A stretch of DNA of 51,409 nucleotides. Origin: Flavobacteriaceae bacterium. GTDB lineage: Bacteria; Bacteroidota; Bacteroidia; Flavobacteriales; Flavobacteriaceae. The DNA is taken from the NCBI GenBank assembly GCA_002702895.1, contig PACX01000024.1, forward strand, positions 56,536 through 107,944, read 5' to 3'. The notes under the pieces are model-generated. The model was not told the DNA's origin. It was given only the letters and a program-made list of their open reading frames with translations, and searched no databases. This document shows positions 41,276 through 47,684 of the stretch, piece by piece (position 1 is the stretch's first letter; every line of letters starts with the position of its first letter). Position numbers and translations under genes: made by a program.

Positions 41276-41314
41276 TATAAATGATTTTAATTAATCTCTA
41301 AGATAGAGAAATTG

Positions 41315-41388
41315 TCGGGATGACAGGATTTGAACCTGCGACCCCACGGCCCCCAGCCGTGTGCGCTACCGAACTGCGCTACATCCCG
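41315..41388 (-). tRNA. tRNA-Pro, anticodon GGG
   Basis: Cloverleaf on the minus strand: acceptor CGGGATG/CATCCCG, D stem GCGC/GCGC, anticodon stem CACGG/CCGTG with loop CTGGGGG (anticodon GGG), T arm GCAGG-TTCAAAT-CCTGT, discriminator A. The 3' CCA is not encoded. Its 5' end lies 5 bases after the stop of the lipoprotein gene, so it may be processed from that transcript. Confidence 0.95.
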
Positions 41389-41393
41389 AAAAT

Positions 41394-42233
41394 TTATCTT
41401 TTATAAGTTCCATCTGGTAAAACAGTTGGAAAATTATAAAGTGGATCTGTTAGAAGTGAATAAATCGCTGTATCAGTTGATTGAACTAATGATTTTGTAT
41501 TCAAATCCCATTCTTGCGATATTTCATTTAATCTTTTTTTTTGAGCACCTAAGATTGAAGTCATCCCCCAATAAATATATTCTGTAGCCATACATCCGTA
41601 ATCACATGTTTGATCGTCATATGTGTACCAAGCAACACTTGGATAAGGATTAGGAACGGAAGGAAAATACCCTCCTCTTGCAATATCCATAGCATTAGTT
41701 AAAGAAGTACCTGCTTTTTCTCCAAAAGTTAAGGGATACGCATTAGCATATCCTATATGAGTAATCACATGCCAAATTTCTTCAAGAGATGCATCAAATT
41801 GTCCTGTATGACCATTTTTATGCCACTCAGGTATAGTTTCATCTGCTCCTAAATCTTGTGCATTAAGTTGTATCTGAGATTCTTTTTTCCACATAAATAA
41901 AGCTGCTTTATATGCTCTTAAAGTTGATAAAAGTGGAGTATTATCTACAACTCCATCTTCATCATTATCTAAATATTGTGCCATAATATTAGCAGCATGT
42001 AATAATTTTGAGTCTTCAACATCAGAATATGCATAAATGGATATTCCAAAAACCTCTACTTTTCTGTTTGTTGCTGTAAAACCAGGATCTGCATGAGCAA
42101 CAATAATGAAGTTAGGATCATTTCCAGGATTAATTGGTTCAGAATTTTTAACGTTATCACTTTCTCCACATGATATATAACCAAAAAAGATAAAGGTTAT
42201 AAATAATAATATCTTTTTAGTAGGGCTTTTCAT
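41394..42233 (-). CDS. Lipoprotein of unknown function with an HxxxH motif and a calcium-loop-like stretch
   Basis: A 279-residue lipoprotein: signal sequence ending in GYISC (Cys22), then a linker to about residue 40. It has two features worth noting: LDNDEDGVVDN (about 88-98), which looks like an EF-hand or dockerin-type calcium loop, and SLEEIWHVITHIGYANAYP (about 149-167), with His155 and His159 in an HxxxH arrangement preceded by Glu151-Glu152, resembling a metal site but not a proper HExxH. CDYGCMATEYIYWGM follows, with a CxxxC pair. I recall related uncharacterised proteins in marine bacteria and some eukaryotes. No known domain name can be given. Located between tRNA-Pro(GGG) and the divergent sulfatase. 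Confidence 0.85.
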   Translation of the reverse strand: MKSPTKKILLFITFIFFGYISCGESDNVKNSEPINPGNDPNFIIVAHADPGFTATNRKVEVFGISIYAYSDVEDSKLLHAANIMAQYLDNDEDGVVDNTPLLSTLRAYKAALFMWKKESQIQLNAQDLGADETIPEWHKNGHTGQFDASLEEIWHVITHIGYANAYPLTFGEKAGTSLTNAMDIARGGYFPSVPNPYPSVAWYTYDDQTCDYGCMATEYIYWGMTSILGAQKKRLNEISQEWDLNTKSLVQSTDTAIYSLLTDPLYNFPTVLPDGTYKR

Positions 42234-42333
42234 GATAATTATTTTTAATTAACAATATAGAAATTTATTATAAAAATATTTTAATAGAAATAAGACAAAC
42301 TTTAACTTTAGAACAACTTTTAAAAATAATGAA

Positions 42334-44091
42334 ATGAATTTCAAAACTTTTATTTATTTCTTTCTTCTAATACAGTTATTTGGATGTAAGTATAGCAATA
42401 ATGACAACCCTAACATTTTAATTTTTTTAACTGATGATCAGGGATGGGGTGATTTAAGTATAAATGGTAATCCAAACTTGAGTACTCCAAATATTGATGA
42501 AATTGCTAAAAACGGAGCAAGATTTGAAAGATTTTATGTAAGTCCAGTCTGTTCTCCAACTAGAGCAGAGTTATTAACTGGAAAGTTTTTTCTTAGATCT
42601 GGAGTTAAAGGAGTTACCAAAGGTTATGAGAGAATGAATGTAGATCATAAATTAATTTCTGATTTTTTTAAAGAAAAAAAATATAGAACTGGACTTTTTG
42701 GAAAATGGCATAATGGATCCCAGCCTCCTTATCATCCAAACTCAAGAGGATTTGAAGAATTTTATGGGTTTACTGCTGGTCATTGGGGAAACTATTTTAA
42801 CCCAATATTAGAAAAAAATGGTAAAATTATTAATGGGAAAGGATATATATCAGATGATATTACCAACAATGCCATTTCATTTATAAAAAAATCAGAAGAA
42901 CCTTTTTTTACATTTGTTTCATATAATACTCCCCATTCACCAATGCAGGTTCCTGAATCTTATGTTTCTAATAAAAAAATAATTAAACAGGGTAGGTATG
43001 CTGAAAAAGAAAATATTAGAAAAACTGAAGCAGCACTTGGAATGGTTGAAAATTTGGATTATAATGTTGGAAAAGTAATAGATTCATTAAAAAAATATGA
43101 TTTATATAAAAACACTATCATCATTTTCTTTAGCGATAATGGCCCAAATGGAAATAGATGGAATAACGATTTAAAAGAAAAGAAGGGTAGTACAAATGAA
43201 GGAGGAGTTAGAGTTCCATTTTTTATTCAATGGCCATCAAAAATTAAAAAAGGAATAAAAATAAATCAGATTACAAGTGTAATGGATATTTTCCCAACAT
43301 TAGTTGAATTAACTAATAATTCTTCTAATATAGAATTTGATGGAAAAAGTTTTAATCAATATTTAGAGGATCCATATTTAAAGGATAATGATAGGAAAAT
43401 ATTTTCATATTGGAGAAATAAAATAAGTGTAAGGAACAATAATTTTATTTTAGATAATAATGATGATTTGTTTAATTTAAATAATGATCATAAACAAGAA
43501 TTTCGAGTAAATGAAAATTTTATTAATGATTATAAAGAATTAAAAAAAGCTAAAGAGCAATGGAAAGATTCATTAGTTGTCCCTTATAATAAATTAATTA
43601 GCAAAAGAAGATTTACAATAAATTACACTGATTTAATTGATACCCATCTTCCAGCTAGAGATGCTGAAATCACAGGAATTTTAAAAAGATCATCTATACA
43701 TGCAAACTGTTCTTTCATTGAAAATTGGAAAAATGAAAATGACTATATATATTGGGATTTAGATGTTTTAAACTCTGGAAAAGCTAATATTGATTTATAT
43801 TATACCCTTCCAGAAAATAGCAAAGGAACTGAAATTGCAATTGAATATGAAAATCAAATAATATATAAAACGATAGATGATTTTTATGATCCGAAATTAA
43901 TAGGAATGGAAAAGGACTTTGTAAAAAGAACAGAGTCATATACAAAAGAATTTAAAAGAATTAATATCGGGGATTTGTATTTTAAAAAAGGATTATCAAC
44001 ATTAAAAATCAAAACAACAAAAAAAATTGGAGAAAAATCAATTGATTTTAGATTACTAATATTAAAAAAATATAATGAAAAGAGTTCTTGA
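42334..44091 (+). CDS. Type I sulfatase, lipoprotein, with C-terminal accessory domain
   Basis: A 585-residue arylsulfatase-fold enzyme on a lipoprotein signal (LIQLFGCKYS, Cys18). The metal-binding DDQGWGDL and the signature VCSPTRAELLTG with Cys73 (to be converted to formylglycine) are clear, as are GLFGKWHNGSQPPYHPNSRG and FFSDNGPNG. From about residue 430 onward there is a separate beta-rich domain (WKNENDYIYWDLDVLNSGKA) of the type seen in many Bacteroidota/Planctomycetota sulfatases, perhaps a carbohydrate-binding domain. The natural substrate (algal sulfated glycan) is inferred from the GH10 and BNR-4 neighbours. Overlaps the GDPD gene by 17 bases. No sulfatase-maturing enzyme in the window. 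Confidence 0.93.
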   Translation: MNFKTFIYFFLLIQLFGCKYSNNDNPNILIFLTDDQGWGDLSINGNPNLSTPNIDEIAKNGARFERFYVSPVCSPTRAELLTGKFFLRSGVKGVTKGYERMNVDHKLISDFFKEKKYRTGLFGKWHNGSQPPYHPNSRGFEEFYGFTAGHWGNYFNPILEKNGKIINGKGYISDDITNNAISFIKKSEEPFFTFVSYNTPHSPMQVPESYVSNKKIIKQGRYAEKENIRKTEAALGMVENLDYNVGKVIDSLKKYDLYKNTIIIFFSDNGPNGNRWNNDLKEKKGSTNEGGVRVPFFIQWPSKIKKGIKINQITSVMDIFPTLVELTNNSSNIEFDGKSFNQYLEDPYLKDNDRKIFSYWRNKISVRNNNFILDNNDDLFNLNNDHKQEFRVNENFINDYKELKKAKEQWKDSLVVPYNKLISKRRFTINYTDLIDTHLPARDAEITGILKRSSIHANCSFIENWKNENDYIYWDLDVLNSGKANIDLYYTLPENSKGTEIAIEYENQIIYKTIDDFYDPKLIGMEKDFVKRTESYTKEFKRINIGDLYFKKGLSTLKIKTTKKIGEKSIDFRLLILKKYNEKSS

Positions 44092-44827
44092 AATAATCTC
44101 AATACTGTCTCTTGTTTGTTGTTCTTTTCAAAATAAAGATCCACTTATTATTGGTCATAGAGGAGCAATGGGACATGTAATAGAAAATACAATTCCATCA
44201 ATTAAAAAAGCAATTGAATTAGGAGTTGATGGAATAGAAATTGATGTTTTTAAGTGTAAATCAGGAGAAATTGTAGTTTTTCATGATAAAAAGCTAGATA
44301 GATTAACAAACTCATTGGGCTATATTGAAGACCTTTCTTATGATTCAATTATGAATATAAAAGTCAAGGGAAAATATAAAATACCTGAGCTATTAGAAGT
44401 TATTGATATTTTACCAAATGAGATATTTCTTAATGTTGAATTAAAAGGTAAGGATACTGCAAAAAAGGTTAACCAAATTATAACTGAATTTATTGATAAT
44501 ACAGACTCTAAATTAGATAGATTTATTATATCAAGTTTTGACTGGAACGAATTAAGCGTTATGAGATCTATAAATAAAGATATTCCTATTGCAGTTTTAA
44601 CTGATAAGAGTATCGTAAAAGCAATTGAAGAGGCTATAAAATTAAAAGCTATTGCAATTAATCCTAGTCAAAAGCTGTTAAACTTTGAAATTGTAAAAAA
44701 AATTAAATCTTATGGGTTAAAAGTTTTTCCTTACACTGTTAATAATCCAATTGAGATAAAAAAAATTAAAAAATTTAATATTGATGGAATAATAACTGAT
44801 TTTCCTGAAAGAATTAATATTAATTAA
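44075..44827 (+). CDS. Glycerophosphodiester phosphodiesterase, lipoprotein
   Basis: A 250-residue TIM-barrel enzyme that splits glycerophosphodiesters to glycerol-3-phosphate and an alcohol. LIIGHRGAMGHVIENTIPS (His of the HRG motif), DGIEIDVFKCKSGEIVVFHD (ExD metal site and HD histidine) and the final GIITDFPERI are diagnostic. The N-terminus (ISILSLVCCSFQNKD) looks like a lipobox, so it is probably anchored in the periplasm or on the surface. It starts inside the sulfatase gene (17-base overlap) and would recover phosphate and glycerol from phospholipid head groups. Confidence 0.93.
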   Translation: MKRVLEIISILSLVCCSFQNKDPLIIGHRGAMGHVIENTIPSIKKAIELGVDGIEIDVFKCKSGEIVVFHDKKLDRLTNSLGYIEDLSYDSIMNIKVKGKYKIPELLEVIDILPNEIFLNVELKGKDTAKKVNQIITEFIDNTDSKLDRFIISSFDWNELSVMRSINKDIPIAVLTDKSIVKAIEEAIKLKAIAINPSQKLLNFEIVKKIKSYGLKVFPYTVNNPIEIKKIKKFNIDGIITDFPERININ

Positions 44828-44863
44828 AATTATTTATTTACATATTTTTTTTAAATTCAAATT

Positions 44864-44871
44864 ATATTTGT
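44864..44871 (+). promoter_or_regulatory. Putative -7 element of the xylanase gene
   Basis: TATATTTG fits TAnnTTTG and ends 13 bases before the ATG at 44885. It suggests that the xylanase has its own promoter separate from sulfatase-GDPD. The -33 region has only TTTA-like sequence. Confidence 0.4.
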
Positions 44872-44884
44872 TTAAAATATAAAA

Positions 44885-46018
44885 ATGAAAAAGATATTTA
44901 TAGTATTTATTCTCTTTATATCCTGTTCAGGCAGTAATAATGAAGAGGAGGTTAGTATAGAGAATCCACAACAAAATGTTGAGAGTTTTAAAAAGATTAT
45001 CTCAGATAATTATAACAAAGATTCTTTTAAATTTGGAGCTACATTAAATTTTTTTCAGCTCAATTCAGATACTGAAAAACTTTTTTTAAAAGAGTTTACA
45101 TATACAACTGCTGAAAATTCTTTTAAACAAACTATAGTTCATCCTGAACCAGATATATGGAATTGGGATAGAGTTGATGCTTTTATAAATTTTGCTAATA
45201 CTAATAATGTTGAAATGAGAGTCCATGGTCCCATTGGTCCTCAATCGTCAACCTGGGCAAAGGAAGATTTTAGGACGAAAGAAGAACTTACAAAAAACTA
45301 TGAGGAATTTCTAACAGAACTATGTAAGAAAATTAATAATGAAAAAAATATCAAATGGATGGATGTTGTTAATGAAACAATTGGATCTAATGGGGAATGG
45401 ACAGATAAAAAAGATGGAACTAATAAGTGGGAAAATCCATGGACCCAGATAGGAAAAAACAATGATGGTATTCCGCTATACATAATAAGATCATTTGAAA
45501 TTGCTGATCAGTTTGCTCCTAATATAAGCTTAGTTTTTAATCAGCATGCTGGTATGCAACCTGAGATGTGGGATAAAGTTAAAGAGACTATACTTTATTT
45601 AAAAAATAAAGGTATAAGGATAGATGGGTTGGGATGGCAGGCTCATTTAAGAGATAATGTTGTTTTATCATTAAATAAAGAAAAGTTAGATTATTTATTG
45701 TCACTAATTGATTGGGCACATCAAAATAATTTGGATTTTCATATTACAGAAATTGATTATAGGTTAGTAGGAACTAATCCTACTAGTTCTCAATACAATA
45801 GACAAGCTCACGGATACACCAATATTCTAAAAATTTTAATATCAAAAAGAAATAATGGTGTTGTCACCTATAATACATGGGGAGTTTATGATAAAAATGA
45901 TATCTCATCTCATGAATTTAAATATATTTATGATTCAAATTTAAATCCAAAGAAAGCAGTTGATGAATTGAAAAAAGCTTTGAAAAGTAAAAGTATAATT
46001 CCAAAATATTTAGATTAA
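44885..46018 (+). CDS. GH10 endo-1,4-beta-xylanase, lipoprotein
   Basis: A 377-residue glycoside hydrolase family 10 enzyme with a lipoprotein signal (VFILFISCSGSN, Cys15). The acid/base glutamate is in MDVVNETIG (Glu164) and the nucleophile in FHITEIDYR (Glu289), both in the standard GH10 context; NFEMRVHGPIGPQ-like and GLGWQAHLRDN match family blocks. It cleaves internal beta-1,4-xylosidic bonds; a marine source such as red-algal or mixed-linkage xylan is possible. No carbohydrate-binding module is seen. Surface anchoring is inferred from the lipobox. Convergent with the BNR-4 gene, with 27 bases between the stops. Confidence 0.92.
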   Translation: MKKIFIVFILFISCSGSNNEEEVSIENPQQNVESFKKIISDNYNKDSFKFGATLNFFQLNSDTEKLFLKEFTYTTAENSFKQTIVHPEPDIWNWDRVDAFINFANTNNVEMRVHGPIGPQSSTWAKEDFRTKEELTKNYEEFLTELCKKINNEKNIKWMDVVNETIGSNGEWTDKKDGTNKWENPWTQIGKNNDGIPLYIIRSFEIADQFAPNISLVFNQHAGMQPEMWDKVKETILYLKNKGIRIDGLGWQAHLRDNVVLSLNKEKLDYLLSLIDWAHQNNLDFHITEIDYRLVGTNPTSSQYNRQAHGYTNILKILISKRNNGVVTYNTWGVYDKNDISSHEFKYIYDSNLNPKKAVDELKKALKSKSIIPKYLD

Positions 46019-46060
46019 ATTATATATAAAATAGTTTATTTAAAATTAATAATCTAAATA
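46007..46060. terminator. Inverted repeat between convergent xylanase and BNR-4 genes
   Basis: TATTTAGATTA (46007-46017) and TAATCTAAATA (46050-46060) are perfect 11-base inverted copies with a 32-base AT-rich spacer. Each arm encodes the C-terminal YLD(Y) end of one gene. It may be a bidirectional terminator or merely reflect similar coding ends; the arms have few G/C pairs. Confidence 0.35.
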
Positions 46061-47488
46061 AAGAAAACCAGAACTTTGTTTTTCAGGATCACTGTTCCAT
46101 CCATAAAAGATAAAAGCATCTTTCATTTTATTTCCCTTTTTATCTTTAATAAACTGGATATTGTTAAATTTCCAGTCTGAGTCAGTATTTTTAGGAGTTA
46201 TTTTTTTATAAAATTCCCAATTCATACCATCGTTAGATACCCACTCCTCAATTTGACCCCCACCATGTTTATCCATGTAACCACCATTTAATTCATTAAT
46301 TTTTGTCCAATTATTCAAATTATTTTCTCTTAAAAATTTTTTAGCATCATCATATGGTGTTTTTAATACTTTATCTCCAGTAATAAGATAAGCATGGTAT
46401 TTGTCATTTTTAATTATTATATCAGCATTATTCCATTGATGATTTGAACTTCTAATAGAAGATTTAATCCATTTTTCATTCAAATAATGAACAAAATAAT
46501 ATTGAAATTCATTAAGATTTTTTTCAGTGAGAACATGAAGAAAAGCAGGGTTCCCGTTTTTGTCTTCAATAATTTCTGGTGGAATTCCTGAACCCCTTCC
46601 CTTTGTATTCCATATAATACAGTTTTGGTTAGCAGTATATAGATCAATTGGAAGTTTCATGGGTTCACCTGAAAAATTATATGCTTTTCCACTTTCCAAG
46701 TCAATTTTTAAATAATATAGATTGTACTTGTAATCATTTGTGACAATTGTATTGTAACGTTCGTTGAAGTATCTACCCGGATTATTTTGTTTATTATCAT
46801 CATAAGATATAAATGCTATATGCATAAATTTTTTATCATTACTTAAAGTATAAGAATGATATGAAGACCATTCAAACATTCCTTTACTGTCTAAATCAGT
46901 CGTGGGTGAAACACTTGATATCCAAACCTTTGTATTGTAATTTTTTAAAGCATATTTCCAATTACTGGTATGTCCCCCATTTCTAAAATAGATTATATCT
47001 CCAAAGGCAGATGTTGAAAATGAAGGGTAAGAAACTTTGGTTTCCAAAAAAGGAATTTTTTCCCAATCATCTAAAGATTTACCTATTGAAAGTTTTTTTT
47101 TTGAAATTAAATGAATGCCTGGAGAATTATGAGCACCATAAAAAACATGTAAATTCATTTTTTTATCTGCCCAAATAATTGGACAATCATGGTGATCTGA
47201 TGAAGCACTTCCTAAGCTAAAGGAATCCCCAAAAGTTTTGGTTTTTAAATTAAAATTAGTGATAATCGGCATTGTTCTTGGCTTTTCATCTTTATTAATG
47301 CTATTTCCATTATAAACCAAATAAATTTCATTTCCCTCTTTTAAAGCCTGAGGTCTCTGTCTTCTATCGTATAACATTTTTAAATTTCCACCTTCTCCAA
47401 ATGAATAAATAGCGTATTTGTTATTTTGTTGTTGAGAATATAATTGACTTGTAATTAAAATTAAGGTAGCAAGCAATTTATTTTTCAT
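46046..47488 (-). CDS. Secreted BNR-4-type beta-propeller protein, possible glycan-active enzyme
   Basis: A 480-residue protein with a signal peptide (LLATLILITSQLYSQQ). It resembles the BNR_4 family: SSDHHDCPIIWADKKMNLHVFYGAHNSP is a typical blade with conserved histidines, and several Asp-box-like blade turns follow (e.g. DDWEKIPFLE, WNNADIIIKNDKYHAYLITG). Some BNR_4 proteins are oligosaccharide lyases (ulvan group) or glycosidases; the catalytic residues cannot be assigned from sequence alone here. The sulfatase and xylanase nearby favour a polysaccharide role. Reads leftward, ending against the xylanase gene; tRNA-Pro(TGG) lies upstream of its start. Confidence 0.75.
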   Translation of the reverse strand: MKNKLLATLILITSQLYSQQQNNKYAIYSFGEGGNLKMLYDRRQRPQALKEGNEIYLVYNGNSINKDEKPRTMPIITNFNLKTKTFGDSFSLGSASSDHHDCPIIWADKKMNLHVFYGAHNSPGIHLISKKKLSIGKSLDDWEKIPFLETKVSYPSFSTSAFGDIIYFRNGGHTSNWKYALKNYNTKVWISSVSPTTDLDSKGMFEWSSYHSYTLSNDKKFMHIAFISYDDNKQNNPGRYFNERYNTIVTNDYKYNLYYLKIDLESGKAYNFSGEPMKLPIDLYTANQNCIIWNTKGRGSGIPPEIIEDKNGNPAFLHVLTEKNLNEFQYYFVHYLNEKWIKSSIRSSNHQWNNADIIIKNDKYHAYLITGDKVLKTPYDDAKKFLRENNLNNWTKINELNGGYMDKHGGGQIEEWVSNDGMNWEFYKKITPKNTDSDWKFNNIQFIKDKKGNKMKDAFIFYGWNSDPEKQSSGFLYLDY

Positions 47489-47561
47489 AAAAAAATATTG
47501 ATTGAAGAGAATCTAAATTTAATCTTTTTTTAATGATTATAGATTCTAATAGCATAGTTAA

Positions 47562-47606
47562 TAAAAAATTCCAATCAATTAAAAATCAACTAATTGGAAT
47601 TTTTTA
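47562..47606 (-). terminator. Intrinsic terminator of tRNA-Pro(TGG)
   Basis: TAAAAAATTCCAAT (47562-47575) and ATTGGAATTTTTTA (47593-47606) form a perfect 14-base-pair stem with a 17-base loop, ending in a T-run on the minus strand. It lies 3 bases beyond the tRNA discriminator base. Confidence 0.75.
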
Positions 47607-47609
47607 GTG

Positions 47610-47684
47610 TCGGGGTGGCAAGATTCGAACTTGCGACCTCCGCGTCCCAAACGCGGCGCGATAACCGGGCTACGCTACACCCCG
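47610..47684 (-). tRNA. tRNA-Pro, anticodon TGG
   Basis: Minus-strand cloverleaf: acceptor CGGGGTG/CACCCCG, anticodon stem CCGCG/CGCGG with loop TTTGGGA (anticodon TGG), T arm GCAAG-TTCGAAT-CTTGC, discriminator A, CCA not encoded. A near-ideal promoter precedes it and a hairpin terminator follows, so it is an independent unit. Confidence 0.96.

What the first reader, a model, noticed from the sequence alone, without database searches (positions are those of the whole stretch)
41394..42233. Uncharacterised lipoprotein with HVITH and DNDEDG motifs next to tRNA-Pro
Seen: a lipobox, a calcium-loop-like LDNDEDGVVDN, SLEEIWHVITHIG with His155/His159, and CDYGC. The histidine spacing resembles an HExxH metal site whose glutamate is valine, with two glutamates just before. 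Inference: a metal-dependent secreted enzyme of an undescribed type or a degenerate metallopeptidase.
Basis: partly seen in the sequence, partly recalled or inferred. Interest (0 to 1): 0.5.

Follow-up and report, generated by a model that had tools for sequence, protein, structure and literature searches.

The report
Lipoprotein with altered zinc-peptidase motif
The gene encodes a lipid-anchored protein from a widespread, unnamed branch of metallopeptidase-like proteins in which the first histidine of the classic zinc motif HExxH is a glutamate (EExxH), which raises the testable question of which metal it holds and whether it still cuts peptides.

Summary
It matches no Pfam, NCBIfam or PHROGs family, yet 158 relatives were found, mostly in Bacteroidota. 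Among 22 sequences down to about 20% identity ten columns are invariant, including Glu132, Asp147, Glu151-Glu152-x-x-His155 and Glu218. Paralogues lacking Glu152 and His155 (two origins on a quick tree) also lack Glu132, Tyr205 and Glu218. Profile searching led to an HExxH family, weakly similar to M34/ATLF peptidases, whose HExxH falls on EExxH and whose conserved Glu falls on Glu218 (hhalign 98.1%, E 6.9e-14). Best reading: a lipid-anchored zincin-like metallopeptidase with a Glu/His/Glu metal site. Metal, activity and substrate are untested. The gene is cargo of a variable site between two tRNA-Pro genes.

The parts
41394..42233 (-). EExxH lipoprotein gene, 279 aa
42168..42233 (-). signal peptide and lipobox Cys22 (residues 1-22)
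   Evidence: C22 in 81 of 86; processing inferred
41943..41969 (-). Asp-rich, calcium-type loop (residues 89-97); conserved in the subfamily, mostly not in the wider family
   Evidence: D89, N90, E92, D97 in 86 of 86; calcium binding inferred
41838..41858 (-). strand and following residues 126-132 with Gln126 and Glu132; possible substrate (edge) strand
   Evidence: strand 126-129 in the model; Q126, L128, E132 invariant in 22 of 22
41769..41783 (-). Glu151-Glu152-Ile-Trp-His155, the EExxH motif on helix 149-165
41757..41759 (-).
   Evidence: 58 of 86, 66 of 131
41619..41621 (-). Tyr205, candidate catalytic tyrosine of the subfamily
   Evidence: 87 of 87, Asn in all three motif-less paralogues; role inferred
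41592..41606 (-). CDYGC (210-214), possible disulfide; absent from the wider family
41580..41582 (-). Glu218, candidate third metal ligand on helix 212-228
41314..41388 (-). tRNA-Pro (ggg), one edge of the variable site
47609..47684 (-). tRNA-Pro (tgg), other edge of the variable site

Best explanation
A lipid-anchored, zincin-like metallopeptidase of an undescribed branch in which HExxH reads EExxH. Proposed mechanism: one divalent metal is held by Glu151 and His155, one turn apart on the active helix, and by Glu218 from a later helix; Glu152 activates the water; residues 126-132 line the substrate cleft; Tyr205 steadies the transition state. Shown: the gene, the family, the invariance of these residues, their joint loss in some paralogues, and the alignment with an HExxH family. 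Inferred: metal binding, catalysis, and that the substrate is a peptide. A carboxylate-rich site may prefer a metal other than zinc.
For: E132, E151, E152, H155, Y205, E218 in 87 of 87 sequences. Ten invariant columns in 22 wide-family sequences include Q126, E132, D147, E151, E152, H155, G161, E218. Three paralogues without E152/H155 also changed 126, 129, 132, 205, 218; two origins on a quick tree; P 0.009 without the defining positions. HExxH family A5: H/E/H on E151/E152/H155, Gly on Gly161, Glu176 on Glu218 (hhalign 98.1%, E 6.9e-14, 204 columns). A5 matches Pfam ATLF (13 of 19, best 1e-6) and, weakly, PPEP-2 (E 0.0079). The full-length model finds PPEPs first (Z 8.6). Three of four M9 rows fit this frame.
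Against: 46 of 50 fragment rows (M1) put His159, not His155, on the second zinc histidine, the fourth M9 row fits neither frame. All Z are within or below the 7-8.6 that unrelated models reach. The window subfamily alone against A5 gives only 21%, E 0.001. E151 is kept in all three motif-less paralogues, unexpected if it only holds metal. No distances were measured and nothing shows metal or activity. The Tyr of A5 lies 7 residues before its Glu, Tyr205 lies 13 before Glu218.
Confidence: 0.6

Rival explanations
1. The whole EExxH branch is non-catalytic: the change at position 1 ended catalysis and the protein serves as a peptide- or metal-binding lipoprotein.
For: Published surveys find position 1 often replaced in inactive zincins (passages of PMC3650047). 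Motif-less paralogues are kept, one of them as the only copy found in its genome (G087), so the fold is useful without the site.
Against: E132, E152, H155, Y205 and E218 are unvaried in 87 of 87; a dead site would be expected to drift, as it did in the three paralogues.
Confidence: 0.2
2. A metal-dependent enzyme of the same fold that acts on something other than peptide bonds, for example an ester or amide of a glycan or lipid.
For: The window neighbours are a sulfatase, GDPD, GH10 and BNR_4 gene; an HExxH relative is fused to a GH97 alpha-galactosidase.
Against: The HExxH relatives look like M34-type peptidases; neighbours in other genomes include an S41 peptidase.
Confidence: 0.15
3. One reading: a degenerate HExxH at 155-159 with Val in place of Glu.
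For: 46 of 50 fragment rows, all family M1, align His159 with the second zinc histidine (LTA4H anchored by the title [E296Q], other M1 numbers recalled).
Against: His159 varies (58 of 86; 66 of 131) and is Asp in the 400-640 aa paralogues; the HExxH relatives align on 151-155 with Gly161 in step.
Confidence: 0.05

Closest known systems
   Same: Profile alignment over 204 columns; second and fifth motif positions, Gly161, Glu132 and Glu218 equivalents kept.
   Different: His at position 1 in 19 of 19 (two long candidates without HExxH had been left out).
Pro-Pro endopeptidases and other M34/ATLF-type gluzincins
   Same: First in the fold search (6fpc, Z 8.6); order motif, Tyr, Glu; linked through A5.
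   Different: They have HExxH and a Tyr 7 before the third ligand (PPEP-3, passages of PMC12828418). No direct sequence match to the window protein.
M1 aminopeptidases and M9 collagenases
   Same: Next in the fold searches.
   Different: HExxH; the two families imply different helix frames here.
ZIP8/ZIP14 metal transporters
   Same: EEXXH where other ZIPs have HEXXH, tied to manganese transport (passage of PMC10457451).
   Different: Membrane transporters; an analogy on metal choice only.

Membership tests
M34/PPEP-type gluzincin | HExxH motif | tested here: not met
   Position 1 is Glu in 86 of 86 and 22 of 22.
M34/PPEP-type gluzincin | catalytic Glu and second zinc His of the motif | tested here: met
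   E152 and H155 in 87 of 87, the three motif-less paralogues set apart.
M34/PPEP-type gluzincin | third ligand Glu on a later helix | tested here: met
   E218 in 87 of 87, aligned with Glu176 of A5; its binding of metal is not shown.
M34/PPEP-type gluzincin | catalytic Tyr 7 residues before the third ligand | tested here: not met
   Met in A5 (Tyr169/Glu176); in the window protein Tyr205 lies 13 before Glu218.
M34/PPEP-type gluzincin | zincin fold | tested here: inconclusive
   PPEPs first, Z 8.6, 148 aligned, rmsd 4.2, near the 7-8 that unrelated models reach; no Foldseek match at E 0.001.
M34/PPEP-type gluzincin | zinc-dependent proteolysis | not testable with these tools
   needs purified protein
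Degenerate HExxH peptidase in frame 155-159 | His159 conserved | tested here: not met
   58 of 86
Bacterial lipoprotein | signal peptide with lipobox cysteine | tested here: met
   C22 in 81 of 86; surface exposure not tested

The most novel reading that the evidence does not exclude
A large branch of active zincin-like enzymes that holds its metal with Glu/His/Glu instead of His/His/Glu, probably a metal other than zinc, and cuts peptides at the surface of environmental bacteria.
Probability: 0.4. Interest if true: 0.7.

Novelty: new variant of a known kind. Interest (0 to 1): 0.5.

Why it matters
HExxH is the usual signature by which zinc peptidases are found. A branch in which position 1 is Glu escapes that search and Pfam: of 80 members scanned no family was matched by more than 5, the best single match having E 0.00096. 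The branch carries its own controls, HExxH relatives and paralogues that lost the site, so it makes testable which metal such a site holds and whether it can catalyse.

Tried and rejected
Searches that led nowhere: Pfam, NCBIfam and PHROGs with the window protein (one NCBIfam match at E 0.18, far under its cut-off); PDB sequences with the protein, with A1 and with A4 (chance matches or none); phages and plasmids by tblastn (none); the first scan of viral contigs (none; the alignment found two). The viral fold library gave nothing at E 0.001, nor did Foldseek against the PDB for either model.

Considered and left: a ferritin-like di-iron ExxH site; no such protein is in the rows shown, which does not exclude it. 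My own frame test with the truncated fragment came out split, so I did not use it to decide. G690 (E 0.001) is a response-regulator type protein by its sequence (my reading) and taken as chance.

Literature (listings only unless passages are named): 'eexxh' inside any word is held by 4 papers, three on metal transporters and one on protein design by title; 'EEXXH motif' by none; 'EExxH' with 'metalloprotease' by one, on zinc transporters. This covers that open-licence library only.

Rows dropped: duplicate loci L001, L006, L007 and two fragments before the counts; A1 used 80 of 84 candidates (three loci and one fragment left out); A5 used 19 of 21 long candidates, the two left out lacking HExxH; the tree is the quick one, the careful search did not finish. 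Of 72 loci named, the genomes of 49 were searched.

Full report
What is there. The window protein has no Pfam or PHROGs match and one NCBIfam match at E 0.18.

Relatives. A scan of genome contigs gave 172 stretches, 158 of them relatives, the best 80 kept. By record title five are Gemmatimonadota MAGs, two gammaproteobacteria (Oceanospirillum, Endozoicomonas), one a MAG labelled Euryarchaeota that groups with Crocinitomicaceae on the quick tree and may be misbinned; the other 72 are named as Bacteroidota groups, many of marine genera (recalled). The family is patchy: 5 of 60 relatives, own genome included, and 2 of 395 genomes of the phylum, own included, the other being a motif-less paralogue. 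None in phages or plasmids; two contigs of the viral collection hold one.

Which residues matter. In 86 near-full-length sequences E151 is in 86, E152, H155 and E218 in 84, H159 in 58. The two exceptions (L041 from 3971, L079 from 7886) lie one gene away from a normal copy. With four more relatives, one of them a third such paralogue (L089, the only match in its genome), 90 sequences were aligned: 87 have E132, E151, E152, H155, Y205 and E218 without exception. Among 83 columns conserved in at least 95% of these, the three paralogues all changed at 126, 129, 132, 152, 155, 205 and 218, and all kept H79, D89, N90, E92, D97, D147, E151, R186, C210 and C214. L041 changed at nine columns in all: 126, 128, 129, 132, 152, 155, 203, 205, 218. 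The quick tree needs two origins. Without the two defining positions, the overlap of the two lineages is 5 (7 and 20 changes among 81 columns), P 0.009. That E151 is kept in all three does not fit simply; in two of them position 155 is Lys, which could pair with it (inference).

A wider family. Eight of the 80 loci also hold a paralogue of 402-640 aa; of two scanned, one has a T9SS tail and a sub-threshold RTX match, the other no Pfam match. Profile comparison joins it to the window family (hhalign 95.4%, E 1.9e-8, 217 columns), and its profile also hits members of the window family in whole genomes (best E 3.4e-10). Over 22 sequences of the wider family ten columns are invariant: L88, Q126, L128, E132, D147, E151, E152, H155, G161, E218. 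H79, D89, N90, E92, the cysteines and Tyr205 are not among them. In 131 unique rows of everything collected (fragments, three HExxH rows and motif-less paralogues included) position 151 is Glu in 120, His in 1, gap in 10; position 159 is His in 66.

The frame. Two frames were possible: E151-E152-x-x-H155 or H155-V-x-x-H159. I cut the protein inside the helix (residues 44-159; pLDDT 97.3) and used the last aligned residue as a ruler. 46 of the 50 rows shown are of family M1 and put His159 at or within one residue of the second zinc histidine (for LTA4H residue 299, with Glu296 from the title of 3b7s; other M1 numbers are recalled). Of four M9 rows, three (7wss, 7esi, 9l5o) put E151/E152/H155 on His/Glu/His if no gap lies in the helix (numbers from passages of PMC9304777 and PMC8799719), and 2y50 fits neither. 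Z is at most 6.0 and rmsd 3.6 to 4.9 A, so this test is split. The sequence test is clearer. The wider-family profile found matches at E 0.01 in 14 of 395 genomes of the class, own included. One, in G294 (E 5.5e-4), lies behind a GH97 alpha-galactosidase and reads HEFAHLIHTVGI where the paralogues read EEILHLMHDTGI. Searches with that domain (matches in 9 of 295 and 13 of 101 genomes, G294 in both) gave 28 stretches, 24 with HExxH. Nineteen of the 21 long ones form A5 (the other two lack HExxH); in A5 HExxH, Tyr169 and Glu176 are invariant. A4 against A5: 98.1%, E 6.9e-14, 204 columns, with H/E/H on E151/E152/H155, Gly on Gly161, Glu176 on Glu218 and a Glu of an EEN stretch on Glu132. The paralogues alone give 94.0%, E 1.3e-7; the window subfamily alone only 21%, E 0.001, in the same frame.

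Link to known enzymes. 13 of 19 A5 members match Pfam ATLF (M34), best 1e-6, the first one under the curated cut-off (24.8 against 27.4 bits); 13 of 19 match M90, best 0.00036. In the PDB the A5 profile finds lethal factor (E 0.0018), PPEP-2 (0.0079) and PPEP-3 (0.1), the last two not significant or nearly so. Tyr-x6-Glu in A5 equals Tyr190 and Glu197 of PPEP-3, whose paper also describes an edge strand over the active helix (passages of PMC12828418). The full-length model (pLDDT 92.7) finds PPEPs first (6fpc, Z 8.6, 148 aligned, rmsd 4.2); by title the rows shown there are metallopeptidases, lethal factor included, or a putative metal-dependent hydrolase.

Mechanism. I propose a metal held by E151, H155 and E218, with E152 as base, Tyr205 and residues 126-132 completing the cleft. 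The first His of HExxH is known to be replaced by Glu about twice as often as in proteins at large, often in family M2, and the second by Lys (passages of PMC3650047); here Glu is the rule of a branch that keeps the rest. In ZIP8/14 an EEXXH site is tied to manganese (passage of PMC10457451), a reason to test metals other than zinc. Metal, activity and substrate are not shown.

Surroundings. In relatives 55 of 73 upstream and 57 of 78 downstream neighbours run in the same direction; directly upstream are an AraC-type regulator with membrane helices by my reading (14) or a LytTR response regulator (5), directly downstream a lipoprotein that I read as ClpP-like (12; no Pfam match), an S41 peptidase (5) or an intradiol dioxygenase (5). 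In the window the gene sits with a sulfatase, GDPD, GH10 and BNR_4 gene between two tRNA-Pro genes with 6,220 bases between them. In five of the seven congeners that carry the BI-1 gene this site varies: in G019 the two tRNAs are 68 bases apart; G005 has two other ORFs between them; G016 has only a sulfatase (74% identical) between its tgg tRNA and BI-1; in G011 and G006 only the tgg tRNA was found, with no ORF of 150 aa or more before BI-1. The EExxH gene itself was found in no other of the 22 genomes of the genus (many are incomplete), apart from a distant relative in G017.

Noticed in passing
window 41314-47684: Variable cargo site between tRNA-Pro (ggg) and tRNA-Pro (tgg): nearly empty, sulfatase only, other ORFs, or the window's five genes in congeners.
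   Followed up: partly
L173 1-1818; L180-L205: HExxH domain, weakly M34/ATLF-like, behind a GH97 alpha-galactosidase (one scanned with Pfam) and in shorter proteins, in tandem in some.
   Followed up: partly
L217 (G017), ORF of 275 aa on the minus strand; L047 from 6932: A further branch reads EHLLH at the motif: Glu and His at positions 1 and 5 kept, His in place of the catalytic Glu.
   Followed up: no
L091, 5001-5348: Viral-collection contig with the EExxH domain at the end of an open frame of at least 1782 aa that runs off the contig; the rest of the ORF was not searched.
   Followed up: no
L015 6274-6879, L020 2891-3559 and 15 other loci: Lipoprotein of about 200 aa with an SGAVD stretch, ClpP-like by my reading, without Pfam match (one scanned), in 17 of 80 loci.
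   Followed up: no
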